Shown here: positions 36,538 through 58,103 of the stretch, one piece after another
Position numbering within the stretch: position 1 is the stretch's first letter
Layout: every line of letters begins with the position of its first letter
NCBI GenBank assembly: GCA_018653365.1
Contig: JABIAG010000001.1
Coordinates: 1-64,000 of the forward strand
Origin: Candidatus Woesearchaeota archaeon
GTDB taxonomy: Archaea; Nanobdellota; Nanobdellia; Woesearchaeales; JABIAG01
DNA: 64,000 bases
Reading direction: 5' to 3'
Translations under genes and position numbers: made by a program
Notes under the pieces: model-generated
Database searches by the model: none
What the model was told of the DNA's origin: nothing
What the model saw: the letters and a program-made list of their open reading frames with translations, nothing else

Positions 36538-39500
36538 ATGAAAAACAAATTATTAATTAGTCTGACAATTGTAACTCTTTTGTTAGTGTCAGCATCAATA
36601 ACTTTGAATAAAGGAGAGACTAAAATTACAGGATATGCAGTGAACTTTGGACAAGGATGTTGTGAACTAACTTGTACAGAAACAGATTCTGCAGATTGTC
36701 CAGCAAATTTGTTTAGTCTTGGAGAAAGTTGTTTTAATTTAGAAGAATGCAATTTGGGATGTTGTATAGATGGGGAAGGCTATTGTTATACAAACTATTT
36801 GCGAAGTTCATGTGAAAGAGAAGATAATGTTTTTGTAAGGGGAAGGGAATGTTCAGAATATAAAGAATGTCTTGTAGCGCCCCCTTTTCCCGCAGATCAG
36901 ACAGGGTATATGTTTACAAATAAAGACGGAGTTTTGGGTTCAGTTATGAATCCGTATGCTGGAAATGTGGGAACAAAATTTGAAATCGCAGTAACAACAT
37001 TAAGTAAAGAAGCAAGTGTAAAAGTCAATATAAGTTCTACAACTTACCAGGTAGTTTTGGAGTTAGCAGATGACGGAATTTTACCTGACTTGTTTGTAAA
37101 TGATGAAGAATATAGGGTTGAGTGGGATTCAAGAGATCATCCTTCTGTGTGGCAAATAACTCCTGTTAAAATACAACCTATTCTAGATGGGAAAGAAAAA
37201 GGATTGGAAGAATTATTGTTTTTAACCCCCAATGACTGTGCACCCTCAATGCCAACCTGGGATTTAACGGCGAATAGAACTAATATACTGTTTGCGAGAA
37301 AATCAAATTTAGATTATTTAGATACACAACAAAGAGGAATAGGCCTGTGGCATCAATTATTAAATGATTTATATGAAGTGCAAGAAAATTATGAATTGTA
37401 TCACTTGGAAAATACCCGAGAAAACACTATAAATATTGCTTCGGATTGTGCAATAGGGTTGGGAGAAAACGACTTAATAATTTTATTTGATTTTGATGAA
37501 CCTTTTTGTAGACAAGAAGGAAAAATGGTTGTAGCCAGTAACGCAATCATACCAAAGGCAGGAATGACAATAACAAATGCGAACTTTACTAAAAACTTCT
37601 GCGACTATGTACACTCACCAATACAAGACCTTGAAGACTTTATAACAAGCTTTCAAAATCCCATAATAGAAATACTTGATCCCCTAGAAAATGTAAGCAC
37701 AAATGAACCTACTCTGGATTTATCATTTAGGGTAACTGATAATCAAAGTGGAATGTTAAGATATAGTGTTTATCTTGGAAGTGATAATAACCAATTAGCC
37801 TGGGGCTATATGGTTGCTAATACTACTGTAACAAGAACTGTGAACTTACAAGATGGATTACATAAGTTATACGTAATGGTTCAAGATCTGGATATGAATG
37901 TCATTGGAGAACAAAGAATATTAAACGTAAGTGTAAATAATTTTACGTTACAATCAAATCTTGAACCTGAAATGATCTCGTTAAAAACGTTTACAATGGA
38001 GCTAAACGTAACTCATGATACTCAAGAAAACATAACTGCACTAATTTTTGATGGATGGAACCCAGTAATGATTGGAAATTTAACAGTAAACGAAACAAAA
38101 ATAGCAACATTTAATCTAACCCCTGGAGAACATGAAATTTGGGCAGCAGCATATGACAAAAATGGAAGAAAAGCAACAACACCCGTTTCAGATGTAACTG
38201 TATTTGGGGTGCCTGATGATGCAACTTCACCATCACAAAGACTAAGTTTACAGATTGCAGCAATAGACAGCATAGGGGGAATAAATTACACTTCAGAAAC
38301 AATAAACTATCAAATGTTCATAACAGAAAACCCCCAAACAATAACTCTTGATAAATGTGGCTTGGATGAAGATACTGGAGAGGGAGATACAAACCCTGCA
38401 GAAACAATAGATGAGTATTGTTTAAACGAAATAAGAATCAATCAAAATACAATAGAACTAGACTTTTACTACAGTCATGGTGGAGAAAGTTATATACAAG
38501 CCATACAAGTAAACGGAACGTTAGAAGGAACTAATTTTAGTGAAGAAAAGATTATAGCAACTATAAAACCTGATGGAGAAGAAGTTGGTGATGTAACAAT
38601 AACAACCGGTAGTTCAGGACTGACCGCATTAACCGGAGCATTCTTATGGTTTGATGATGAAGAAGAAAGATTTAGTCCAACAGTAGCAGCACCATCTTGG
38701 GTAGATGATGAAAATGTGGCAGGTTATACTGGCGGGCCAGAACCTGATGAAGAGGGATGTATCGAAGGACCTGACGGAAAAAGACATTGTCCAATAGATG
38801 ATGCCGGTTTTTACGAACCAATGTTATTATGTAGTGAAGGTCAAGACCAAGGAATTATGTTTAGGCCAATACAATGTATTGATTCATTCACAACAGACAT
38901 ACAAATAGATAATGGATTAAAAACCAAAGAAGAAACAGGGTACAAATATCAATTAAATTATGAAGTATTTTCTTGTAATGAAGACATTTTTGTCGATATA
39001 CGTCTAAAAAATTGTGTAATAGAGGGAGTGCCAGGAACACAAGAAGAAGAATTATTCTCTACAACTTTGGATGTGGCATATAAAGTAACCTCAACCGAGG
39101 AATACGAAAGTCAATTAAACTGTGCAGAATTCTGTATATTTGTATCCGACGAAACAGTAGCAGATGTTCCGAGATGTATTCCTTTTGAAATACCTCAATG
39201 TAGTGATGGAATAGATAATGAAAATCCAGGAGATGGACTAACTGACATGGATGATCCTGGCTGTTCAGAACCAAATGACAATGATGAGGGGGACGGAACA
39301 AGTGAGTGTCAAGATACAGACGACAATGATAGAGATGGATTAGTAGATGAAGATGATCCAGGATGTCACGAAGAAGGAAAATTAAGCAAACCCTACAAAC
39401 CAACTCATAATAATGAAGCAGGCGCAACAACACAGTGTCAGGATGGAGCAGATAATGATGGGGATAAAGTGTGTGATTATGCTGGCTGTACAATTGGAGG

Positions 39501-40041
39501 GACATTAATGCCGCCAGATCCAGGATGTAGTTCACCAAGCGATGATAGAGAGAACGATGGAACAACAGAATGTCAAGATGGAATAGATAACGATTTTGAT
39601 GGTAGATGCGATAATGGATGTACCATAGCAGGATTCACACTTCCACCAGATCATGGCTGTTTTTTAGACCTAAGCTGTTACCCTTCATGTTATGATCAAA
39701 CAATAGATGATGAAAATAGACAGGTTCCAGTATGTTATTTGCTTGATGATAATACAATAGAATTAAATGCCAACATATATGGAACTGGGTCAGAATTCAG
39801 ATACGTGCTAGACTATACCATACATGCCTGTAGGGCGAGAATGGTATACAATGTATACTTGACTACCCTTGATGGAAGTTCAACTTACAATGTAATTGGA
39901 GATGCAGGTGGGACATTAATAAAAGACCAAAGCGAAATAATAACAGATTATGAAATAACTCTCCCAGACCAATACGACAAATTATGTGTATGGACTGCAG
40001 GGGAAGGAACACAATGTACAGGGATACAGGCAGGAATGTAA
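36538..40041 (+). CDS. Large secreted Cys-rich protein with calcium-type DxDxDG repeats
   Basis: The 1167-residue protein has a Sec-type N-terminus (ISLTIVTLLLVSASITL) followed by ETKITGYAV, a pattern I associate with surface proteins of Woesearchaeota-like genomes. A Cys-rich segment (residues about 40-110) and Ig-like modules follow (NPIIEILDPLENVSTNEPTL). Near 39196-39675 there are four repeats of the type C-x-D-G-x-D-N-D-x-D-G-x-x-D, several continuing to D-P-G-C, for example CQDGIDNDFDGRCD. The acidic ladders probably bind calcium and the cysteines pair up. It lies 9 bases after the previous gene in one operon. Probably an adhesive or structural surface protein. Confidence 0.75.
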   Translation: MKNKLLISLTIVTLLLVSASITLNKGETKITGYAVNFGQGCCELTCTETDSADCPANLFSLGESCFNLEECNLGCCIDGEGYCYTNYLRSSCEREDNVFVRGRECSEYKECLVAPPFPADQTGYMFTNKDGVLGSVMNPYAGNVGTKFEIAVTTLSKEASVKVNISSTTYQVVLELADDGILPDLFVNDEEYRVEWDSRDHPSVWQITPVKIQPILDGKEKGLEELLFLTPNDCAPSMPTWDLTANRTNILFARKSNLDYLDTQQRGIGLWHQLLNDLYEVQENYELYHLENTRENTINIASDCAIGLGENDLIILFDFDEPFCRQEGKMVVASNAIIPKAGMTITNANFTKNFCDYVHSPIQDLEDFITSFQNPIIEILDPLENVSTNEPTLDLSFRVTDNQSGMLRYSVYLGSDNNQLAWGYMVANTTVTRTVNLQDGLHKLYVMVQDLDMNVIGEQRILNVSVNNFTLQSNLEPEMISLKTFTMELNVTHDTQENITALIFDGWNPVMIGNLTVNETKIATFNLTPGEHEIWAAAYDKNGRKATTPVSDVTVFGVPDDATSPSQRLSLQIAAIDSIGGINYTSETINYQMFITENPQTITLDKCGLDEDTGEGDTNPAETIDEYCLNEIRINQNTIELDFYYSHGGESYIQAIQVNGTLEGTNFSEEKIIATIKPDGEEVGDVTITTGSSGLTALTGAFLWFDDEEERFSPTVAAPSWVDDENVAGYTGGPEPDEEGCIEGPDGKRHCPIDDAGFYEPMLLCSEGQDQGIMFRPIQCIDSFTTDIQIDNGLKTKEETGYKYQLNYEVFSCNEDIFVDIRLKNCVIEGVPGTQEEELFSTTLDVAYKVTSTEEYESQLNCAEFCIFVSDETVADVPRCIPFEIPQCSDGIDNENPGDGLTDMDDPGCSEPNDNDEGDGTSECQDTDDNDRDGLVDEDDPGCHEEGKLSKPYKPTHNNEAGATTQCQDGADNDGDKVCDYAGCTIGGTLMPPDPGCSSPSDDRENDGTTECQDGIDNDFDGRCDNGCTIAGFTLPPDHGCFLDLSCYPSCYDQTIDDENRQVPVCYLLDDNTIELNANIYGTGSEFRYVLDYTIHACRARMVYNVYLTTLDGSSTYNVIGDAGGTLIKDQSEIITDYEITLPDQYDKLCVWTAGEGTQCTGIQAGM

Positions 40042-40748: not shown

Positions 40749-41261
40749 ATGGACATAGCATTCCCAAAAAATAACGAAAAAGAATTCCTAAAAAGAACCA
40801 AAGAATTAGGAAAAGAAACTAGATTCATCTACCCATTCAAAAAAAAGTTTAAAAGTACACACAAATACGGATTTTTATCAGATAAAAAAGTAGCACCATA
40901 TTCAGTTTATTTATCAAAACAAAATGATCGAGCAGTATTTGAAAAAGGTGTTGATCTAATTTATGGATTAGAACTTAGCAAAAGAGCAGACTTTATATTT
41001 CATAGAAATTCAGGAATGAACCAGGTATTAGCAAAGATCGCACAAGTAAAAGGAATTACTATTGGTTTTTCTTTTAGTGATTTCATGAAAGCAAAAAATA
41101 AAGCTAGACTCTTAGGGAGAATGCAACAAAACTATCGATTATGCAAAAAATACGGTGTTAAAACACTAATAGCAAGCTTCGCACACACCCCTGAAGAATT
41201 ACAAGATAAAACTACCTTAAAATCATTTAAACAGATCCTAGAAAAAAGGAAATTATTCTAA
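40749..41261 (+). CDS. rnp3: RNase P protein subunit p30 (Rpp30/Rnp3)
   Basis: The 170-residue protein fits archaeal RNase P p30, a TIM-barrel-like subunit that with Pop5 activates the catalytic RNA in tRNA 5' maturation. It begins MDIAFP and has the family's ADFIFHRNSGMNQVLAKIA and GFSFSDFMKAKNKARLLGRM segments, then a C-terminal strand-helix KTLIASFAHTPEEL. It is short by family standards (usually about 210-240 residues). It lies at the end of the surface-protein operon, an unexpected place for a core gene, and overlaps the convergent peptidase gene by 35 bases. Confidence 0.8.
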   Translation: MDIAFPKNNEKEFLKRTKELGKETRFIYPFKKKFKSTHKYGFLSDKKVAPYSVYLSKQNDRAVFEKGVDLIYGLELSKRADFIFHRNSGMNQVLAKIAQVKGITIGFSFSDFMKAKNKARLLGRMQQNYRLCKKYGVKTLIASFAHTPEELQDKTTLKSFKQILEKRKLF

Positions 41262-42273
41262 TAACAAAATTACCCCCAAAAATCAGGGTTAACAACACCC
41301 CAACAAACAAATAAAATGCAAAATGAGTGGTTCCAACAATTTCTACCTGATCAAAATCTCTTTTAGCAGATTGGATCTTGTTAACTTCTTCATCATTTAA
41401 CCCTTCTGCATTAGGAGAAACAAGTTTCTTACCAATATTACCCAGACTACACTTATCCTCTTTCCAAATAACATTTGTGGCAAGAATCATGCCTGTTTTT
41501 AACTTACTAACTTTAATTTTTGTAATAAAATCATTATTAGTTATGGTAATTAACATGATTCTAGTAACTTGAAACAAAACAAACAAAATTAGGGTTTGAA
41601 TTAAAAAACTCAGGGAAAAAATGTTAGAAAAAATAGCACGAATAACAACAAAAATTAGGGCAATATAAAAATAACTCTTTTCTAAGTAATTCTTCAAAAT
41701 AAATATAATGATTAAAACTAAAGCATAACGTAAAAGCTCATGACTAATAAAAAAGAAAACAAAAGAAACAAACCAATAAACACCTATAACAGAAACCAAA
41801 ATCGAGATTACACTCAAAAAAGAAAATTCTTTTTTAATTAACGGCAAACTTTTCTTTAGATTAGTTTTGGTTAAACTTTTAATAAATAAAACAACCCCTA
41901 GCGGGATAAACGTGTTAAACAATAAGGTAAATGCAGGAAAAAATTCAAATCCACCCACAGAATAAAACGATAAAGGAACTAAAAAAGCAAATGCAATAAA
42001 CAATTTGCCATCTCCAGCACTCCAAAAATTAAAATGCCATAAAAAGTACCCAACTAAAATCGAAATAACAATATTGACAATTATTGTAATTAGTTCAACA
42101 GAAACAAAAGTATTATTTAAAAAGCCATTAAAGAAAAAAACATAATAAACAAATAATGCATAAATAATTGCAGAAAAGGTCCATTTATTCCGAATTTTAC
42201 CAAATTTTAAATCTTCAAAACTAGTTAAAACTCCCAACAAAAATATTACTGGTAAAAGAAGATAATTTAACAT
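41227..42273 (-). CDS. A24-family prepilin peptidase (PibD/FlaK-like)
   Basis: The 348-residue polytopic aspartic protease carries both catalytic acids: Asp21 in SFEDLKFGKIRNK and Asp88 in WSAGDGKLFI, matching the D and GxGD motifs of archaeal preflagellin and prepilin peptidases. About eight hydrophobic helices are visible, with a C-terminal soluble segment (GMILATNVIWKEDKCSLG...) before the last helices. It cleaves class III signals of pilin-like proteins. It is the third gene of a minus-strand operon whose first two genes encode pilin-like proteins. Confidence 0.88.
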   Translation of the reverse strand: MLNYLLLPVIFLLGVLTSFEDLKFGKIRNKWTFSAIIYALFVYYVFFFNGFLNNTFVSVELITIIVNIVISILVGYFLWHFNFWSAGDGKLFIAFAFLVPLSFYSVGGFEFFPAFTLLFNTFIPLGVVLFIKSLTKTNLKKSLPLIKKEFSFLSVISILVSVIGVYWFVSFVFFFISHELLRYALVLIIIFILKNYLEKSYFYIALIFVVIRAIFSNIFSLSFLIQTLILFVLFQVTRIMLITITNNDFITKIKVSKLKTGMILATNVIWKEDKCSLGNIGKKLVSPNAEGLNDEEVNKIQSAKRDFDQVEIVGTTHFAFYLFVGVLLTLIFGGNFVIRIISFFLGSV

Positions 42274-42314: not shown

Positions 42315-42752
42315 TTAACAACATACAATTGTTCCAGTACGACCACTAGCAGTAGCATACAACATAACTTTGTCAGACGGACAAGAAATATCACCATTCG
42401 AATTTGTTCCAAAACTTCGAGTAATTACTTCACATTTGTATTTGATCTGATTCCATAAATTAGCATAAGTACTGCAAGACTGGAGATTATTGTTAGACTC
42501 ATCAAACCCTCTTAAAACCCCTGTGTAACAAGAACCTAACCCTTGAATGTAATAAAATGATAAATCTGAAGAGGTATCCGAAAAGTCAATTCGACCATTA
42601 GAATCAGCATCTACCGAATCTAGATTAGAATCAACAAAATTAGCCAATCTTTGTTTAACAGGGCCTTCAGCAGAAATTAAAAAGCTTCCAATTAAAACTA
42701 CAAAAACTAACATAAACCAAAATGCAATTTTTCCCGTAATTATTATTTTCAT
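42315..42752 (-). CDS. Pilin-like or anchored small protein with EF-type calcium loop
   Basis: The 145-residue protein starts MKIIITGKIAFWFMLVFVVL, a short basic N-terminus and a single long hydrophobic helix, then a helical stretch, a perfect EF/dockerin loop DADSNGRIDFSD and a Cys-bounded segment CYTGVLRGFDESNNNLQSC. It ends in paired cysteines (IVCC). It is homologous to the proteins at 42761 and 56472. Given the adjacent prepilin peptidase it may be a minor pilin or pseudopilin, although a typical Glu at +5 is not evident; a plain signal anchor is the alternative. Confidence 0.7.
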   Translation of the reverse strand: MKIIITGKIAFWFMLVFVVLIGSFLISAEGPVKQRLANFVDSNLDSVDADSNGRIDFSDTSSDLSFYYIQGLGSCYTGVLRGFDESNNNLQSCSTYANLWNQIKYKCEVITRSFGTNSNGDISCPSDKVMLYATASGRTGTIVCC

Positions 42753-42760
42753 TTTAACAT

Positions 42761-43141
42761 TTATCTTTTCATTTCAATCCAACACTTATTTCTTGTGGTA
42801 GCAGCAACATATTCACACTCAAAATCAACATAAGTACAAATTGGATTACCTGAACTATCAAAACCAGTTAATAATTGGTTTTCTAAACAAAGACCTGGCA
42901 CGTTATCAATATTTGCCATTTGAACCTTAAATGCTTTTTCAGATTCATCAATAATCCCATTATTATCCGCGTCAACACTCATGAAATCAAAACTCGATTT
43001 AGTAACTTGACTTAAAGAATTATAAAAAGGGGGAGTAAGAGAGGAAGAAGAGAGCGAATTAAGAGCGATAAAACTAACTAAAATAACAAATAAAGCACAA
43101 AGGGTATATTTGGCCTTTTTCTCAATTATAATCTTAAGCAT
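42761..43141 (-). CDS. Pilin-like or anchored small protein with EF-type calcium loop
   Basis: The 126-residue protein starts MLKIIIEKKAKYTLCALFVI followed by the hydrophobic helix, then a Ser-rich stretch, a perfect calcium loop DADNNGIIDESE (acids or Asn at positions 1, 3, 5, 9 and 12) and CLENQLLTGFDSSGNPIC, a Cys-bounded motif shared with its paralogues. It is the first gene of the pilin-like/prepilin-peptidase operon; a TATA-like box at 43167-43174 lies about 27 bases upstream. It is 8 bases from the next gene. Confidence 0.7.
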   Translation of the reverse strand: MLKIIIEKKAKYTLCALFVILVSFIALNSLSSSSLTPPFYNSLSQVTKSSFDFMSVDADNNGIIDESEKAFKVQMANIDNVPGLCLENQLLTGFDSSGNPICTYVDFECEYVAATTRNKCWIEMKR

Positions 43142-43186
43142 GATTAAATTAATAAAACAATTACTATTTATATATTTCGGTGTGAA

Positions 43187-43200
43187 AACTTTTAAAAGTT
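43187..43200 (+). promoter_or_regulatory. Palindromic promoter element of the HXS operon
   Basis: AACTTTTAAAAGTT is a perfect 14-base palindrome whose TTTAAAAG core is 25-28 bases before the hxsD ATG at 43219. It can act as the TATA box and as a binding site for a symmetric regulator. The implied message is leaderless. Confidence 0.5.
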
Positions 43201-43218
43201 ATAGACCACAAACAAAAA

Positions 43219-43590
43219 ATGCAAAATATCAAAATAAAAAACGGAATTGTAAAAATTAAGGTAAATACCTCAATTTATCCTCTAGAAACCATTTATTCCG
43301 CACTCTATGTTTTCTTAGATAGGGCATATGTGTTATTAGATGGAAATCCTAAAAAAAACGTAATAGTAAATTTAAAACCCAAATGTGACGAAGATTTGAA
43401 TATAATCGGACAAGAGTTCAACAATGAACTGATAAACTATGCTAGTTACAAAGAAATCTCCGAAAGAAACAAAGAGGTTAAAAAAATACTTTTAAGCAGA
43501 GCACTGTTAACAAATAACCCTCAAAGTGTACAAAAACAACTATTAGAAGAAGACGAAGAGGTAAAAATCCCCTGGGAAGATGATCAGTAA
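43219..43590 (+). CDS. hxsD: His-Xaa-Ser system protein HxsD
   Basis: The 123-residue protein matches the HxsD family, defined in bacteria by its place beside HxsB/HxsC radical SAM maturases. The N-terminal half has STSIYPLETIYSALYVFLDR and AYVLLDGNPKKNVIV. The C-terminal half has FNNELINYASYKEISERN followed by KEVKKILLSRAL, the region corresponding to the family's conserved N-x-L-L-N-Y...R-E helix. It is probably a partner or leader-binding protein rather than an enzyme. It heads a four-gene operon and overlaps the next gene by 11 bases. Confidence 0.85.
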   Translation: MQNIKIKNGIVKIKVNTSIYPLETIYSALYVFLDRAYVLLDGNPKKNVIVNLKPKCDEDLNIIGQEFNNELINYASYKEISERNKEVKKILLSRALLTNNPQSVQKQLLEEDEEVKIPWEDDQ

Positions 43591-43783
43591 AACAAGAAAA
43601 GGATACAGAATAAAATTCAATAAAGAGTTTTATTCAGAAAACACACTAAAAAAAGCACTGGATGATTTTAAAGAGGTATTAACAGGTACTGTTAAAAACA
43701 ACATGATGATGATAAATTTGAAGGTTTCTGATGAAATCATCCCGTATGAGTTCTGCAACTATGTTTTCAGCTTAACAAAATGA
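43580..43783 (+). CDS. Short HxsD-like protein
   Basis: The 67-residue protein looks like a reduced HxsD: GYRIKFNKEFYSENTLKKAL resembles the first strand-helix of HxsD, IINLK-type strands follow, and it ends with EFCNYVFSLTK, echoing the N-x-L-x-N-Y motif. It overlaps hxsD by 11 bases and hxsB by 4 (ATGA). It may serve as a second peptide-recognition element, like small PqqD-type proteins in other peptide-modifying systems. Homology to HxsD is my reading of pattern, not an alignment score. Confidence 0.65.
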   Translation: MISKTRKGYRIKFNKEFYSENTLKKALDDFKEVLTGTVKNNMMMINLKVSDEIIPYEFCNYVFSLTK

Positions 43784-45141
43784 AAAATTTCAGATTTAAA
43801 AAAAAAGGAAATGAATACTTGTTAACAAATGATTCAGGTAATTGGGAATTCATCACAAAAGAAGAATATTCACAGTTAAATAATTTAAGTGAAACAAGCG
43901 AGTTGTATGGGCGATTAGAAAAAAAAGGACTAATCATAACAGAAAAGAATAAAGAACAAATAGTAGAAGATTTAAGGGAAAAAAAGGGATTCTTATTTCA
44001 GGGACCGGGACTACACATACTAATTCTAACTTTAAGATGTAATGAACATTGTGTTTATTGCCATGCTAGTTCAAAAGACCTGAAAGAAAAACAGTACGAT
44101 ATGACCAAAGAAATTGCAGAAGACGTGGTTAAAAGAATATTCGAAAGTAATAATCAAAAACTTTGTATTGAATTCCAGGGAGGAGAACCATTAGTTAACT
44201 TCGAAGTTTTAAAATTAGTTGTTGAAAAAGCAAAAGAACTATCCAAGGGAAAAGAGGTATTGTTCAGAATTGTAACAAATTTAGAACTAATGAACAAAGA
44301 TAAATTAAATTTTCTAATAGAAAACAATTTTGATATATGCACTTCGTTAGATGGTCCAAAAGAATTACATAATAAAAATCGTGGAGGATACGAAAAAGTT
44401 ATTGAATGGATCACTAAAATAAATGAAGAATACAAAAAAAACAATCAAAAAAGAAACGTAAACGCTTGTTTAACACTAACAAAACAATCCCTGGATAAAG
44501 GAAAAGAAATCATTGATGAATATATAAAACAGGGAATGAAAGAAATTCCTTTAAGATCATTAAAAAAGTTAGGTGATGCAAGAAAAAATGTCGAAATTTA
44601 TTACTCTGTTGAAGAATTCATCCAATTTTGGAAAAAAAGTCTTGATTACATAATAAAACTCAATCTTACGGGTAAATTAATAATAGAAAGAAAAGCACTA
44701 ATCATATTACAAAAATTATTTGAAACAAAAGATCCTGGGTACGCAGATTTAAGAAGTCCTTGCGGCGCAGTACTTGGACAGGTACTCTATAATTATGATG
44801 GACAGGTTTACACCTGTGACGAAGGAAGAATGTTAGACGAAGACTTATTTAAAATAGGTAATGTAAAACAAAGCTTAACCGAACTAACAACAAATGACGA
44901 AGCACTGGCAGTAATAAGCGCATCAATAAATGATTCATATATTTGTGAAAGTTGTGTATACAAACCCTTTTGTGGAGTTTGTCCAGTACTAAACTATGCC
45001 GAATTTGGATCAACAATAGGAAGAATAGCAGAAAGTGACTGGTGTAAATTACATAAAGCACAATTCGATTACATCTTTGAAAAATTAAAAGAATCACAGA
45101 TTAAACAAGTATTCATGAACTGGCTTAAACGAAAGATTTAA
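43780..45141 (+). CDS. hxsB: Radical SAM/SPASM maturase HxsB
   Basis: The 453-residue protein matches HxsB, one of the radical SAM enzymes that modify His-Xaa-Ser peptides. An N-terminal recognition domain precedes the radical SAM site LRCNEHCVYCHASS (Cys87, Cys91, Cys94) and FQGGEPLVNF. The C-terminal SPASM part binds auxiliary 4Fe-4S clusters: SPCGAVLGQVLYNYDGQVYT, TCDEGRML, CESCVYKPFCGVCPVLNY and SDWCKLH. The SPCGA, CDEGRM and PFCGVCPV segments are the family hallmarks. It overlaps the HxsD-like gene and is 25 bases from the precursor. The HxsC enzyme usually paired with it is not in this window. Confidence 0.9.
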   Translation: MKNFRFKKKGNEYLLTNDSGNWEFITKEEYSQLNNLSETSELYGRLEKKGLIITEKNKEQIVEDLREKKGFLFQGPGLHILILTLRCNEHCVYCHASSKDLKEKQYDMTKEIAEDVVKRIFESNNQKLCIEFQGGEPLVNFEVLKLVVEKAKELSKGKEVLFRIVTNLELMNKDKLNFLIENNFDICTSLDGPKELHNKNRGGYEKVIEWITKINEEYKKNNQKRNVNACLTLTKQSLDKGKEIIDEYIKQGMKEIPLRSLKKLGDARKNVEIYYSVEEFIQFWKKSLDYIIKLNLTGKLIIERKALIILQKLFETKDPGYADLRSPCGAVLGQVLYNYDGQVYTCDEGRMLDEDLFKIGNVKQSLTELTTNDEALAVISASINDSYICESCVYKPFCGVCPVLNYAEFGSTIGRIAESDWCKLHKAQFDYIFEKLKESQIKQVFMNWLKRKI

Positions 45142-45166
45142 AATAAATAAGCACATAAAAATAAAA

Positions 45167-45376
45167 ATGACTAAGCTTCCACAAATAAAAAAGAAATTAT
45201 CTTCCTTTCTAACAAGTGAAGAGGGAAAAATAAGTAAAAAAGCAGCAATAACATTAAGCTTAATTGCAGCAGGAAGTGCAGCAATAATCTTAAGTACGCC
45301 AGTAGAAGCAGGAACAACCTGGACATTCAGATGGGCACAACATGAAATACACCATGCAAGTCACAGTAGTTATTAA
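45167..45376 (+). CDS. HXS peptide precursor (HxsA-like)
   Basis: The 69-residue peptide has a basic N-terminus (MTKLPQIKKKLSSFLTSEEG), the motif EEGKISKKA, a hydrophobic segment (ITLSLIAAGSAAIILSTP) that resembles an export signal with possible cleavage at VEA-G, and a short C-terminal core TTWTFRWAQHEIHHASHSSY. The core ends with two His-Xaa-Ser triplets, HAS (45353-45361) and HSS (45362-45370). Typical HxsA proteins are longer with more repeats, so this is a minimal version. Its place directly after hxsB and the HXS ending make it the likely substrate. The modification is unknown from sequence. Confidence 0.78.
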   Translation: MTKLPQIKKKLSSFLTSEEGKISKKAAITLSLIAAGSAAIILSTPVEAGTTWTFRWAQHEIHHASHSSY

Positions 45377-45378
45377 AT

Positions 45379-48300
45379 CTAAGGAACATAAGTTAAATCA
45401 ACATTTTCTACTATAGACCAATTAGAACCCAACCAACCATTACCCTTCTTAATCCATCCCCTTGACCAAACATCTAGACTCGCTTCACTTCCACTAACAG
45501 GAAAGTGTAAGTATTTAACTGAACTAGTAGGTTCATAGAAAACAGTTGTGTAAAGGGGACTAGTTGCAGTTATAGTACAATCACCCCCATTCCACGCACC
45601 ACACTGGTTACGTACTATATTTTCACCAGCATCATAATATCTGAAATAAAGTTCAATACCCTTTCCAATAAGATATTCGGGGTGAGACACAGAACAATCA
45701 ACAAAACCTGTAGTGTATTCACAATAAACTAATGGAACTTCATTACTATCCTGAATTTCAACACCATCATAAAATTTACAACACAAGTTAGTATCATAAA
45801 CATCTGGGCCACCAACATGACCGTTAATTGGATCTGTTAAAGAAATCACTCTTTCATACCCTGCACACTCATTAACAGTTCCCAACTTACAATGAATATT
45901 ATAACCAGGATTAGAATCAACAACGTGTTTTAAACAAATTAAGTTAGTTGAAGAATATGCTTGAGAATTAACATGAGTATTATATTCAGTAGCTAAATCA
46001 ATAACAGGAGAAAATCCAGGAGAACAACCGGTTTGAGAAATCTCAACTAATAATTCACCCTCTTCAGGAATCAAACAAACTTTTTGATCAATATTTGCAG
46101 GATTGCCTGCACCAATCCAAGAAGCATGACCATTCTCCAAATCTGAAATTGCAAATAAATCAAACTCTTTAAGTGCAGGATTACAATCTAAACCAATCTT
46201 TGAATCTAAAGCAAAAACAGGAGAAATTTCAGGACAATCTAAATCCCCATCTAATTCACGAGACTTACCAGGAGCACAACAGCCATCACTACCATCATCT
46301 GCCCAGGTAACTGGATCAAACTCACACAAACCTAATGTATTACATCCAGAGGCATTAAAACAAACAGGAACATCACACGCAGTATTTAACGTTCCATCAG
46401 TTACATCCGTTTGAGAACATTCAGCAGTAAAAAAATCACTACCCGTAGCATCATTACCTCTTAACCTTAACTGACTACTAAACGAGGTCCAAACATCATC
46501 ACGAATCGTTGCAGGAACATCCGCACTAAAACCAATAACCTCCTTATCTAAAAGAGTTCTAACATCAGCAGAACTACCTCCACCCTCACTTACACAACTA
46601 AAATCAACACCATAAAATTCATTCTTTGCATCACAAACCCGCATTACAAACTTACTAAAATTTGCATCAACACTATTTTCAGGATTAACCACTTTAGAAA
46701 TTAAACGATTACTCTCCAAAACAGAATAAAAATAAAATTCATTTTCTTTACCAACAAAAGAACGATCAAATCTTGAAAGCAAAGAATTATCAAAATAATC
46801 ACCATACGAAGCTAATGCAGGTGCGCCATCAATTAAAGTTTCAATATGTTGAATAGGATTACGTAAAAAAGATAAAAAACTAACATCCCACTTATTAGGA
46901 AATGCAACTTCCTCAAATAATGTCTTCAAATTAGTCTCATCTTGAACAACAAATAATAATTTCAAAGGTTGATAATAATAAAGTCCATTCTGAACCTCCC
47001 AACCCTCTTGAGGATTTGTTGGAGAATTAAAATCAAGACCAAAATATGCCCTATTTGGGGGATCAACAATTGTTGAAAAACCAAGAATAACTCGTTGAGA
47101 ATTAGACAAAGGAAGAGTACCAACAGAAGCGTCACCACCATGCTCAATCTGAGTAGAATAATCATCATTTACCAATAAAACACATGCTTCACTTAATTCA
47201 TTAGTCATTCCTGTAAACTCTGAATCATCATTTAAAAGTTGAAGTATCTCACCACGAGGTACATACCCTCCGGTAAGAGTTGAAAATGTATGTGCAATGT
47301 TATCAAAACTATCACAATAAACAGAATAACCATCAACAGCAACATCTGTAGTGGCTCGTTCACCAATTGCAATCAAAAGTTCATTAATTTTACTTGTACG
47401 AGAGGCCCAATAAGCAACACCTTCCTTATTTAAAACACAAAAATTATCTCCTGCCATTTCAGGACCCTCCGTAGACCAAAACGTATTGGCTTCTGCACAA
47501 AATGAGAAAAGCCCATCTTTTAATGCACAGGTGTTAACTGGACAAGAAATTGTTTCACCAGAAACACTAATTTTTGGAGAGGTAGAAACCCATTTTGTTG
47601 GGGTGGTAGTTTTTTGAATAGAAAAAACAGCAGGCAAGTTAACCTTGGTTCTAGAGGTTTCTTCTTCATTATAACAAACATAAGTATTACCTTGTTCAGA
47701 AATGGTACTTCCTACTTCTGCAGCAGTACAAAAACAACCCTCTGGAAATGTAATTGCACTTGTTGAGTCATCACAATCATATCCTCCCGAAGGCTCCAAA
47801 TAAGTCCAATCATTACCCGGACTACAACCAATAACTGTATCCCCCCAATAATTATCCCCATCAGAATTCTTATACCAAGTAGTATTAGGATTTATTAAAT
47901 TAGCAGCAGTTCCACTATCAAAATTTGGACAATCTTCTCCGGACAGACTCAATAATGATTTCCGAGTACCTTCTCGAATCTCTGCAGGATCAACATCGGG
48001 TTTTATTTGACAATCCGCACCATAACCATCGCCATCAGTATCTAAACAATAAACAGTTTCAGGAGTGCTAAACGCATCATTATCTGCAGTTTTACACAAG
48101 TCATTAACATAACTATAACCAACACATTCAGTTTCACTTAAACTTCCAACTTGTGAAGCAGAAATAGTATACCAATAAAACGGATCACGACAATCATCAC
48201 GATCTGTTGCAGTTGTAAAAGAATCACATAAAACGGTCTCAAAAGGAGGCGTACAACCCGTTTCGGGAGGACTTAAATAATGATAAGAATAATAACCATC

Positions 48301-49197
48301 TCCATCTTTATCAAAAACCCAATTTTCTTCATCACAATCACAGGTTAGTAAAATTTCAGAATCTAAACCAGGTTGAACTGAATATCGAACAAAGTTAGGG
48401 CTGGGACCTACTCTAGAACCATCACCCCACATATAAACCTTAATTTTTCTAGTATTAGAAGGCAACCTTGCAGGACCTAAGGTTGTTTTAGAAGCAAGAG
48501 GGGCAGTTCTATAAACAGAAAAAAGAGTCATCAACGCATTATCTGCATGATCTAAAGCTAAGACTGTCATTAAAACTGGAAAATCACTCGTTGTAGTTGA
48601 GGTAAACTTATATGGAAACTTAATTGAAACACCCCCACTATCAATTGCAGTATGATAATCTGCAGGAATGCTTCTAGTTCTTATAATTTCCCTTGGTTGT
48701 CCAGCATTAACATCTACCACTCCAATTTGAGGATTCCCACTAAACGGACAACACTCAGAAGCTTGAGTAGTAATTAAATTAGCACCCTTAGAATCTAAAG
48801 TACACTGGCCAAGTACACTATTACACGAATAATCATCATGAGATTGCCATAAGTCTCCAGCGGCACTACAAAATTCACTTCCTGCAACAGAACTATCTAA
48901 TTTATTACAATCAATAACTCCACACTCATCAGAAACATCATTAACAAAATCACAAGCAACACATTCATCACCAATAATTGCAGGATTTTCAGAAGGATTA
49001 TGACACCAACCATGTGCTTGAGTACAAGTTTGAGTTAAATTATTTTCATTACAAGACCAAGAACAACCCCCAGAACAGCCAACATAATACTCTCCTGAAA
49101 TACAACCATCCCCTAGTGGACGATCATAAGCACTAACAGAGAAAGCTAAAATAGATGTGATTACCAAAAATGCAATTAAAGTAGTTTTCAACTTCAT
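45379..49197 (-). CDS. Large secreted Cys-rich protein with MopE-like metal-binding repeats
   Basis: The 1272-residue protein has a clear Sec signal (TLIAFLVITSILAFSVSA) and more than 50 cysteines. Repeated acidic motifs such as DKDGDGYYSY, DTDGDGYGADC and NSDGDNYWGD, followed by GGYDCDDSTSAITFPEGC, match the metal-binding motif family named after MopE. No membrane anchor is seen, so it may be released or held by other means. It is convergent with the HXS precursor, leaving only 2 bases between them. A TATA-like box (49224-49233) lies about 30 bases upstream. It is a candidate partner or target of the HXS system by position only. Confidence 0.75.
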   Translation of the reverse strand: MKLKTTLIAFLVITSILAFSVSAYDRPLGDGCISGEYYVGCSGGCSWSCNENNLTQTCTQAHGWCHNPSENPAIIGDECVACDFVNDVSDECGVIDCNKLDSSVAGSEFCSAAGDLWQSHDDYSCNSVLGQCTLDSKGANLITTQASECCPFSGNPQIGVVDVNAGQPREIIRTRSIPADYHTAIDSGGVSIKFPYKFTSTTTSDFPVLMTVLALDHADNALMTLFSVYRTAPLASKTTLGPARLPSNTRKIKVYMWGDGSRVGPSPNFVRYSVQPGLDSEILLTCDCDEENWVFDKDGDGYYSYHYLSPPETGCTPPFETVLCDSFTTATDRDDCRDPFYWYTISASQVGSLSETECVGYSYVNDLCKTADNDAFSTPETVYCLDTDGDGYGADCQIKPDVDPAEIREGTRKSLLSLSGEDCPNFDSGTAANLINPNTTWYKNSDGDNYWGDTVIGCSPGNDWTYLEPSGGYDCDDSTSAITFPEGCFCTAAEVGSTISEQGNTYVCYNEEETSRTKVNLPAVFSIQKTTTPTKWVSTSPKISVSGETISCPVNTCALKDGLFSFCAEANTFWSTEGPEMAGDNFCVLNKEGVAYWASRTSKINELLIAIGERATTDVAVDGYSVYCDSFDNIAHTFSTLTGGYVPRGEILQLLNDDSEFTGMTNELSEACVLLVNDDYSTQIEHGGDASVGTLPLSNSQRVILGFSTIVDPPNRAYFGLDFNSPTNPQEGWEVQNGLYYYQPLKLLFVVQDETNLKTLFEEVAFPNKWDVSFLSFLRNPIQHIETLIDGAPALASYGDYFDNSLLSRFDRSFVGKENEFYFYSVLESNRLISKVVNPENSVDANFSKFVMRVCDAKNEFYGVDFSCVSEGGGSSADVRTLLDKEVIGFSADVPATIRDDVWTSFSSQLRLRGNDATGSDFFTAECSQTDVTDGTLNTACDVPVCFNASGCNTLGLCEFDPVTWADDGSDGCCAPGKSRELDGDLDCPEISPVFALDSKIGLDCNPALKEFDLFAISDLENGHASWIGAGNPANIDQKVCLIPEEGELLVEISQTGCSPGFSPVIDLATEYNTHVNSQAYSSTNLICLKHVVDSNPGYNIHCKLGTVNECAGYERVISLTDPINGHVGGPDVYDTNLCCKFYDGVEIQDSNEVPLVYCEYTTGFVDCSVSHPEYLIGKGIELYFRYYDAGENIVRNQCGAWNGGDCTITATSPLYTTVFYEPTSSVKYLHFPVSGSEASLDVWSRGWIKKGNGWLGSNWSIVENVDLTYVP

Positions 49198-56471: not shown

Positions 56472-58103
56472 ATGGAGATTATAATCACAAATAAAGCAGC
56501 TTATGTAATGATATTCTTTTTAGCATTATTAGTTATTGGAATGGGTGTAAATGCAAGAGTAGACCTATCTAAAGCATATCACACTTTACAAGATATAGTA
56601 AAAAGTAACGATCCTTCACAAAGCGTAGATAGAATGGGTGATGGAATTATTGACGAAGCAGATGAAACTCTAAACATAAACTGGTATGATATGAAAAACT
56701 TTCCAAGTTGTACTGGAGAGGGACCTAGTGGTGAAGATAAATTTCTTACCGGATTTTTGGGAGGCGTACCCACTTGCAAAACCTTGGGAGTAACATGTAC
56801 CGGCACGAATTTAAATACTAATTGTCAAATAACACCCACTGTAACCGGAAGCGTTGTCAATACGGGATTGAGTGTGACACAAAATTTTGTTCCACAATAT
56901 GCACTTAAAACTGCAGGATCTTTATGGGTGTCTCTTCTTCCTGAAGCAGCACAATTCACAACAGGACTACTTGTAAAATTAAGCTGTTTATCTGCAGGAA
57001 ATTGTCCTTCTACAACCGAAATGTATAATATTTCTGGACCAAGACAGGTCGATACATATAATTTAGGGACTTATGTTGGAACCGACCAGGCTAATCCTTC
57101 AGGTAAATTCTATAAAATTGATCCAACCGGTTGTATTGGTGTAACAACTAATGTGGATGGACTTAGTTTAGGAAAAGCAAAATCAGTTATTGCAAACGCT
57201 CATGGAGTATTTGTATTAGATGAATTGCGGGAAGAACTAAATAAGTATACTTTAGAACTAATACCTGTAAGTAAGGTTACAATACCAAATCCAGAATATA
57301 TGACTGAAGGTACTTTCGGAGGAATAACCAAACTATTAGTATTGAGCCAGGGCTTGACTGAAAGTTATGTTAAAATATACGATGCTGCAACACTAACTTT
57401 AGAAGAAACTCTTGCAGTACCTGGAGCATTAGAAGGAATAACACTTGATGATGCAGAAAAAATGTTGTTCTTACCCCAGTCTACGGATATTGTAAGATAC
57501 CCACTTAATTACGTTTCAGGCACGTATACTCTAGGAAGTAGAACCGTACTTCCAATAACACATTTAGGAATAAAAACATTATACGCAGCAAACTCCCAAT
57601 TATACTTACCGTTACATCTTGAGAATAAAATAAGTGTTTATAATGCAGCAAATACTGCAACACCTGTACTTTTAGCAGATATTACTACTGCAGACCTATC
57701 CGGAACTATGTTGGACTGTGATGATGCAAGTTTATGTGGACCAATAACCGTCAATGGCGAACCCTATCCACCACAAACAAACTCACAAATTGGAACCGGA
57801 ATAACAACAACACCACAAGCGTGGCAGTATATCACTGGAACGCCAGGAGTATGCCAGTTTACCTGTACAGGAGGAAAAACATATGTTCCGGCAACAAATT
57901 CTTGTGGAGAAACATGGTATAATGTGGGTGTGGGAACAACATATAATTGTGCAGCTGCAACAGATCCTGTAACTCATACATTATTACAAGCAGGAGATTC
58001 ATGCGATACAACACAAGGAGATACTATAAAGTATTATTGTTCAAATTGTAATGCAGATCAAACAAGTTGTGATTATGATAAGTTTGAGTGTAGATTAAAT
58101 TAA
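56472..58103 (+). CDS. Large paralogue of the pilin-like proteins, with propeller-like domain
   Basis: The 543-residue protein starts MEIIITNKAAYVMIFFLALL, closely similar to the N-termini at 42315 and 42761, followed by a calcium-type loop DRMGDGIIDEAD and CTGEGPSGEDKFLTGF...PTC, the same Cys-bounded motif. A long C-terminal extension has beta-rich repeats (VFVLDELREELNKYTLELIP, KLLVLSQGLTESYVKIYDAA, LYLPLHLENKISVYNAANTA) typical of propellers, then a Cys-rich end. It heads the second surface locus. Confidence 0.7.
   Translation: MEIIITNKAAYVMIFFLALLVIGMGVNARVDLSKAYHTLQDIVKSNDPSQSVDRMGDGIIDEADETLNINWYDMKNFPSCTGEGPSGEDKFLTGFLGGVPTCKTLGVTCTGTNLNTNCQITPTVTGSVVNTGLSVTQNFVPQYALKTAGSLWVSLLPEAAQFTTGLLVKLSCLSAGNCPSTTEMYNISGPRQVDTYNLGTYVGTDQANPSGKFYKIDPTGCIGVTTNVDGLSLGKAKSVIANAHGVFVLDELREELNKYTLELIPVSKVTIPNPEYMTEGTFGGITKLLVLSQGLTESYVKIYDAATLTLEETLAVPGALEGITLDDAEKMLFLPQSTDIVRYPLNYVSGTYTLGSRTVLPITHLGIKTLYAANSQLYLPLHLENKISVYNAANTATPVLLADITTADLSGTMLDCDDASLCGPITVNGEPYPPQTNSQIGTGITTTPQAWQYITGTPGVCQFTCTGGKTYVPATNSCGETWYNVGVGTTYNCAAATDPVTHTLLQAGDSCDTTQGDTIKYYCSNCNADQTSCDYDKFECRLN

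What the first reader, a model, noticed from the sequence alone, without database searches (positions are those of the whole stretch)
43219..45376. Compact His-Xaa-Ser (HXS) radical SAM peptide system in an archaeon
Four tightly linked genes (HxsD, a short HxsD-like protein, the HxsB SPASM maturase, and a peptide ending HASHSSY) form one operon with 11-base and 4-base overlaps. The HXS system is known from bacterial genomes as HxsA-D with two radical SAM enzymes. A version with only one maturase, in a genome with archaeal replication genes, is to my knowledge not described. It predicts an exported, post-translationally modified His/Ser peptide in a DPANN archaeon.
Basis: partly seen in the sequence, partly recalled or inferred. 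Interest (0 to 1): 0.9.

Follow-up and report, generated by a model that had tools for sequence, protein, structure and literature searches.

The report
Archaeal one-enzyme His-Xaa-Ser peptide system
A tiny archaeon carries a five-gene kit that appears to make, chemically modify and export a histidine/serine-rich surface peptide; the kit recurs in at least 24 families of its phylum, uses one radical enzyme where bacteria use two, and comes with its own pilin-type leader peptidase.

Summary
The four genes are real and in one operon: HxsD, an HxsD-like protein, the radical SAM/SPASM maturase HxsB, and a short HxsA-type precursor. The genome is archaeal: full archaeal 16S and 23S rRNA lie on the same 762-kb contig. 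It is not a one-off or contamination: HxsB is above cut-off in 32 of 371 sampled genomes of the phylum, and 35 archaeal loci from 24 families keep the D-d-B order, often followed by HxsA. No HxsB-positive archaeal genome tested has HxsC above its cut-off, whereas 29 of 29 bacterial or prophage HxsB loci outside the HxsC model's seeds have it adjacent. Archaeal HxsB keeps all seven SPASM cysteines; bacterial HxsB has mostly lost three. The precursors share a leader resembling an archaellin-type signal with G/A at the expected cut. Predicted pathway: HxsB modifies the His/Ser tail and the A24 peptidase processes the leader at the membrane. The chemistry is unknown. NCBIfam already holds HxsA3, HxsA4 and HxsD-like families, so this is a new variant of a known kind.

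The parts
43219..43590 (+). hxsD: small adaptor protein (123 aa)
   Evidence: TIGR03976 50.2 bits, cut-off 50; leave-window-out profile E 4e-46; present in all 35 archaeal hxsB loci examined; AlphaFold pLDDT 85, beta-beta-alpha-beta-beta-long-helix
43580..43783 (+). HxsD-like protein (67 aa), homologue of HxsD, overlaps hxsD by 11 nt and hxsB by 4 nt
   Evidence: NF038315 46.3 bits, cut-off 41; 26 of 26 aligned relatives match NF038315; second HxsD-type gene in 32 of 35 archaeal loci
43780..45141 (+). hxsB: radical SAM/SPASM peptide maturase (453 aa); CxxxCxxC at C87/C91/C94; seven SPASM cysteines C328, C346, C389, C392, C398, C401, C422; N-terminal 3-strand + 3-helix domain that resembles a RiPP recognition element
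   Evidence: TIGR03978 464.5 bits, cut-off 370; cysteine census; AlphaFold pLDDT 91, nearest solved folds CteB 5WGG and anSME 4K37
45167..45376 (+). hxsA (HxsA3/A4-type) precursor, 69 aa: leader MTKLPQIKKKLSSFLTSEEG, hydrophobic stretch, tail ...HHASHSSY
   Evidence: NF038309 E 1.1e-6, below cut-off; leave-window-out profile E 1e-11; alignment A1
45167..45226 (+). conserved leader (residues 1-20) ending E-E-G before K-I-S-K; predicted A24 cleavage site after G20 (inference)
   Evidence: residue at this position is G (25) or A (2) in 27 precursors, E at -2 in 25 and K at +4 in 26 (the pattern used required G/A, but column G20 is also at least 90% conserved in the unbiased alignment)
41227..42273 (-). 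dedicated A24-type (prepilin/archaellin-type) peptidase, 348 aa, predicted catalytic D21 and SAGD88
   Evidence: Arc_PepC PF06819 25.2 bits over cut-off, Peptidase_A24 sub-cut-off; profile occurs in 31/35 HxsB+ versus 8/336 other genomes; active-site columns; a separate general A24 gene lies at G000:C1:211185-211517
43142..43218 (.). 77-bp intergenic region upstream of hxsD, with a TATA-like ATTTATATATTTC about 50 nt upstream of the hxsD start (candidate promoter, by eye)
   Evidence: sequence read; not tested

Best explanation
A HxsC-less, peptidase-coupled variant of the His-Xaa-Ser (Hxs) RiPP system. The ribosome makes HxsA, whose leader ends in E-E-G|K-I-S-K and is followed by a hydrophobic stretch and a His/Ser-rich tail. 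HxsB, guided by its own N-terminal recognition-like domain and by an HxsD/HxsD-like pair, uses SAM-derived radical chemistry to modify His/Ser (and perhaps terminal aromatic) residues of the tail. The dedicated A24 peptidase then cuts the leader after Gly20 at the membrane, leaving a mature peptide anchored by its hydrophobic N-terminus, or assembled in pilin fashion, with the modified tail outside the cell. Shown: gene identities, conserved neighbourhood, absence of canonical HxsC, intact SPASM cysteines, peptidase co-occurrence, leader conservation. Inferred: that HxsA is the substrate of HxsB and of the A24 enzyme, the order of steps, the topology, and the chemistry (unknown; crosslink, epimerisation or other).
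For: Family models and leave-one-out profiles. Neighbourhood A24-D-d-B-A repeated over 24 families. HxsB over cut-off in 32/371 genomes of the phylum. HxsA relatives with long HGSHGSHGSH tails and the same leader. HxsC over cut-off in 0 of 34 HxsB+ archaeal genomes, but adjacent in 29 of 29 bacterial or prophage loci outside the model's seeds. Archaeal SPASM C328/C346/C401 kept in 31-32 of 33, versus 1-3 of 31 bacterial. A24 profile in 31/35 HxsB+ versus 8/336 others, Fisher p 2e-33. HxsA next to A24 even where HxsB is on another contig or a second HxsA copy is involved (L173, L175). An A24 gene also sits inside a bacterial prophage-like HxsA3 cluster (L087).
Against: No biochemical data. The window's own tail is short and its HxsA score is below the NCBIfam cut-off. 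The A24 profile was built from hxs-linked genes, so part of its specificity is by construction; the genomes are phylogenetically related, so the Fisher value overstates independence. HxsB-like proteins in two f33 genomes lack the radical SAM cysteines yet keep A24, HxsD and HxsD-like, so the radical step is not essential everywhere. In ten loci a short HxsC-like radical SAM gene does follow hxsB, so 'one maturase' is not universal in archaea. HxsC-like proteins scoring up to 222 bits, below the 267.9 cut-off, exist elsewhere in some relatives.
Confidence: 0.72

Rival explanations
1. A plain Hxs system in which the A24 gene is only a conserved neighbour; the peptide is exported by a normal signal peptidase (cut near VEA|G in the window, AxA-like in relatives) and works as a secreted peptide.
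For: Hydrophobic segment followed by AxA-like ends such as PVEA-G, NANA-G, KAEA-N; bacterial HxsA proteins have ordinary signal-like N-termini.
Against: 31/35 versus 8/336 co-occurrence of the dedicated A24 subfamily, a second general A24 in the same genomes, HxsA-A24 adjacency without HxsB, conserved G/A at the predicted -1 site.
Confidence: 0.2
2. The peptide mainly binds metal (His-rich tail, Ni/Cu/Zn), and HxsB installs a minor modification or acts as a chaperone.
For: His-rich tails of very variable length; f33 genomes keep the operon with an HxsB that has lost its cluster cysteines.
Against: CxxxCxxC is invariant in the 33 archaeal HxsB of the main clade and the SPASM cysteines are nearly so, which implies selection for catalysis.
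Confidence: 0.2
3. Bacterial contamination or a recent bacterial transfer into one assembly.
For: Hxs was known mainly from bacteria; a Marinimicrobia MAG HxsB falls with the archaeal group.
Against: Archaeal 16S and 23S rRNA on the same 762-kb contig; operon in 24 archaeal families, often beside archaeal RNase P p30; archaeal HxsB on one side of a 95/93 branch.
Confidence: 0.01

Closest known systems
His-Xaa-Ser system HxsABCD (Haft and Basu, as cited in PMC9062424; NCBIfam TIGR03976-TIGR03979)
   Same: HxsB and HxsD over cut-off; a His-Xaa-Ser type precursor in the same operon
   Different: No HxsC; an extra HxsD-like protein; a dedicated A24 peptidase; archaellin-like leader; full seven-cysteine SPASM domain in HxsB
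NCBIfam HxsA3 (NF038309), HxsA4 (NF038313) and HxsD-like (NF038315)
   Same: Archaeal HxsA proteins match HxsA3 (18 of 21) and HxsA4 (9 of 21); all 26 HxsD-like proteins match NF038315
   Different: The window peptide itself is below the HxsA3 cut-off; bacterial or prophage carriers of these families seen here (L087, L088) also have HxsC
CteB, SCIFF thioether maturase (PDB 5WGG)
   Same: Best solved fold match to the HxsB model (E 6e-20, TM 0.70); radical SAM + SPASM with an N-terminal domain
   Different: 18% identity over the structural alignment; the precursors here are His/Ser-rich and mostly lack Cys in the core
FlaK/PibD archaellin and pilin peptidases (Pfam PF01478/PF06819)
   Same: Paired catalytic Asp motifs, membrane protein, substrate-like leader with G/A at -1
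   Different: Longer diverged paralogue next to hxs; the genome has a separate general A24 gene

Membership tests
Canonical His-Xaa-Ser system (HxsABCD) | HxsB maturase (TIGR03978) | tested here: met
   464.5 bits versus cut-off 370
Canonical His-Xaa-Ser system (HxsABCD) | HxsD (TIGR03976) | tested here: met
   50.2 bits versus cut-off 50, marginal; synteny in 35 loci
Canonical His-Xaa-Ser system (HxsABCD) | HxsC second radical SAM (TIGR03977) | tested here: not met
   best 51 bits in own genome; none over 267.9 in 34 HxsB+ archaeal genomes
Canonical His-Xaa-Ser system (HxsABCD) | HxsA precursor with HxS repeats | tested here: inconclusive
   window peptide 28.4 bits versus HxsA3 cut-off 65 and no TIGR03979 match; relatives with long HGSH arrays share its leader
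HxsD-like family NF038315 | score over curated cut-off | tested here: met
   46.3 versus 41
SPASM-domain radical SAM maturases | CxxxCxxC plus seven SPASM cysteines | tested here: met
   C87/C91/C94 and C328, C346, C389, C392, C398, C401, C422
A24 (prepilin/archaellin-type) peptidase | Pfam Peptidase_A24/Arc_PepC and two catalytic Asp | tested here: met
   Arc_PepC over cut-off, Peptidase_A24 20.6 bits below its cut-off 26.5; D21 and SAGD88
Class III (archaellin-type) signal peptide in HxsA | basic leader, G/A at -1, hydrophobic stretch, cleavage by an A24 enzyme | tested here: inconclusive
   sequence pattern present in 27 precursors; cleavage not testable here
RiPP | post-translational modification of the peptide | not testable with these tools
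   needs mass spectrometry

The most novel reading that the evidence does not exclude
A RiPP pathway coupled to the archaeal pilin/archaellin export route: a radical-SAM-modified His/Ser peptide with an archaellin-type signal, processed by its own A24 peptidase and displayed or polymerised on the surface of small-genome archaea, with HxsB acting alone through a second auxiliary iron-sulfur cluster that bacterial HxsB has lost.
Probability: 0.4. Interest if true: 0.82.

Novelty: new variant of a known kind. Interest (0 to 1): 0.62.

Why it matters
Peptide natural products of small-genome archaea are almost unexplored, and the Hxs system has had no assigned function or chemistry (own knowledge; very few papers in the library mention it). 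A one-maturase version is a simpler system for finding the modification. The difference in SPASM cysteines gives a testable reason why archaea could do without HxsC. The A24 link proposes the missing leader peptidase and places the product at the cell surface, where it could act in host contact.

Tried and rejected
HxsC elsewhere in the window genome: only generic radical SAM scores. Contamination: rejected by archaeal rRNA on the same contig and wide recurrence. RNA genes in the window: none found. HxsD fold search: no hit with E below 0.001; the top hits are Rpb11-type dimerisation folds (E 0.02, TM about 0.5), so an HxsD/HxsD-like heterodimer is only a suggestion. The genome-contig scan with the single window HxsB gave only 6 bacterial relatives. 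A24 search in plasmids: no match.

Full report
Observation. The four ORFs and their overlaps are exactly as described. HxsB passes its NCBIfam cut-off by a wide margin, HxsD only just, and HxsD-like clearly; the peptide matches HxsA3 at E 1.1e-6 but below the curated cut-off. Profiles built from relatives without the window rows recover each gene among 388 window ORFs, with the HxsA ORF as the only HxsA hit.

Host. The contig is 762 kb and carries full-length archaeal SSU rRNA and archaeal LSU rRNA (contig length). The genome is 1.09 Mb, 94.9% complete, 0.24% contaminated. Names are withheld, so 'DPANN' is an inference from the small genomes of the phylum.

Distribution. Among 371 genomes of the phylum, 32 have HxsB over cut-off; with sub-cut-off or truncated copies there are 35, in 24 families. 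In the 35 loci, hxsD is always present, a second HxsD-type gene is present in 32, and an HxsA was found in 24, directly downstream of hxsB in 17; several contigs end early. Many HxsA relatives end in long HGSHGSHGSH arrays, and two others (L067, L059) share a short HHxSH..SSY-type ending with the window, so the window tail is not a random His/Ser stretch.

HxsC. None of 34 HxsB-positive archaeal genomes has HxsC over cut-off (best 222 bits versus 267.9). In contrast, 29 of 29 bacterial or prophage HxsB loci outside the seeds of my HxsC profile have HxsC next to hxsB (21, 8; some are near-copies). Ten archaeal loci have a short, distant HxsC-like radical SAM gene just after hxsB; the window does not.

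HxsB. In a tree of 67 rows the archaeal HxsB proteins, plus one Marinimicrobia MAG sequence, lie on one side of a 95/93 branch; the window row's exact place inside is unresolved. Archaeal HxsB keeps C328, C346 and C401 (31-32 of 33), which bacterial HxsB has mostly replaced by Ser/Ala/Asp (cysteine in 1-3 of 31), while C389, C392, C398 and C422 are kept in most of both. By analogy with anSME (own knowledge), the three lost cysteines would be ligands of auxiliary cluster I. The exceptions on the bacterial side are informative: the Marinimicrobia MAG and the prophage-like contig L087 keep all of them. The predicted fold is that of CteB and anSME, with an N-terminal three-strand, three-helix domain like a recognition element.

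A fifth part. Clustering of neighbours showed an A24-type peptidase in 26 loci, usually directly upstream of hxsD on the same strand. In the window it lies at 41227-42273 on the opposite strand, beyond two small secreted-protein ORFs. A profile of this subfamily hits 39 of 371 genomes, 31 of them HxsB-positive (31/35 versus 8/336; Fisher p 2e-33, not corrected for kinship). Two of the eight exceptions (G182, G203) turn out to hold A24-HxsD-HxsD-like next to a degenerate HxsB, and a third (G157) holds an HxsA with His-Xaa-Thr repeats. Fourteen HxsB-negative genomes have exactly one general A24 gene each, while most HxsB-positive ones have that plus the hxs-linked one. The precursors share a leader with G or A at the position expected for A24 cleavage, followed 4-11 residues later by a hydrophobic stretch. 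A bacterial prophage-like contig has HxsA3-HxsD-A24-HxsC-HxsB in a row, so the peptidase link is not confined to archaea.

Literature. Only four papers in the library hold the first set of Hxs terms and none treats archaea; no DPANN radical SAM RiPP paper on this system was found. Only open-licence papers are searched, and the original Haft and Basu paper is not held. NCBIfam models HxsA3, HxsA4 and HxsD-like already exist, so curators have seen parts of this type.

Verdict. A new variant of the Hxs system: HxsC-less, with an HxsD-like partner, a full SPASM domain and a dedicated A24 peptidase. Identity and distribution are strongly supported; substrate relations, order of steps and chemistry are inferred.

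Noticed in passing
L165:4063-5331 (-) and L166:6402-7628 (+), relatives G182 and G203: HxsB homologues that have lost CxxxCxxC and most SPASM cysteines but still sit beside A24, HxsD and HxsD-like genes: a probably dead maturase kept in the operon.
   Followed up: partly
L115, L116, L117, L118, L119, L041: Arrays of about 5-10 tandem HxsC-like radical SAM genes (many about 300 aa, some fused) near hxs genes or on other contigs of HxsB-positive relatives.
   Followed up: partly
L170:1-339 (-); L177:3450-3758 (-); L178:6401-6898 (-): Precursor-like proteins with other repeat cores: His-Xaa-Thr repeats in G157, and HTNCSH-type Cys-containing repeats directly upstream of the A24 gene in f27 genomes.
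   Followed up: partly
L087:2907-7404: Prophage-like contig (integrase nearby) with HxsA3, HxsD, A24 peptidase, HxsC and a full-SPASM HxsB in one row.
   Followed up: partly
window 42315-42752 (-) and 42761-43141 (-): Two related small secreted-type proteins between the A24 gene and hxsD, with DADxNGxID EF-hand-like motifs; the second also resembles the protein at 56472-58103.
   Followed up: no
window 40749-41261 (+): RNase P p30-like gene convergent with the A24 gene; a p30 neighbour occurs in 11 other hxs loci.
   Followed up: no
window 45379-49197 (-) and 36538-40041 (+): Very large Cys-rich surface-type proteins flanking the hxs region; the 1272-aa one has no Pfam match and no relatives in the loci examined.
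   Followed up: no
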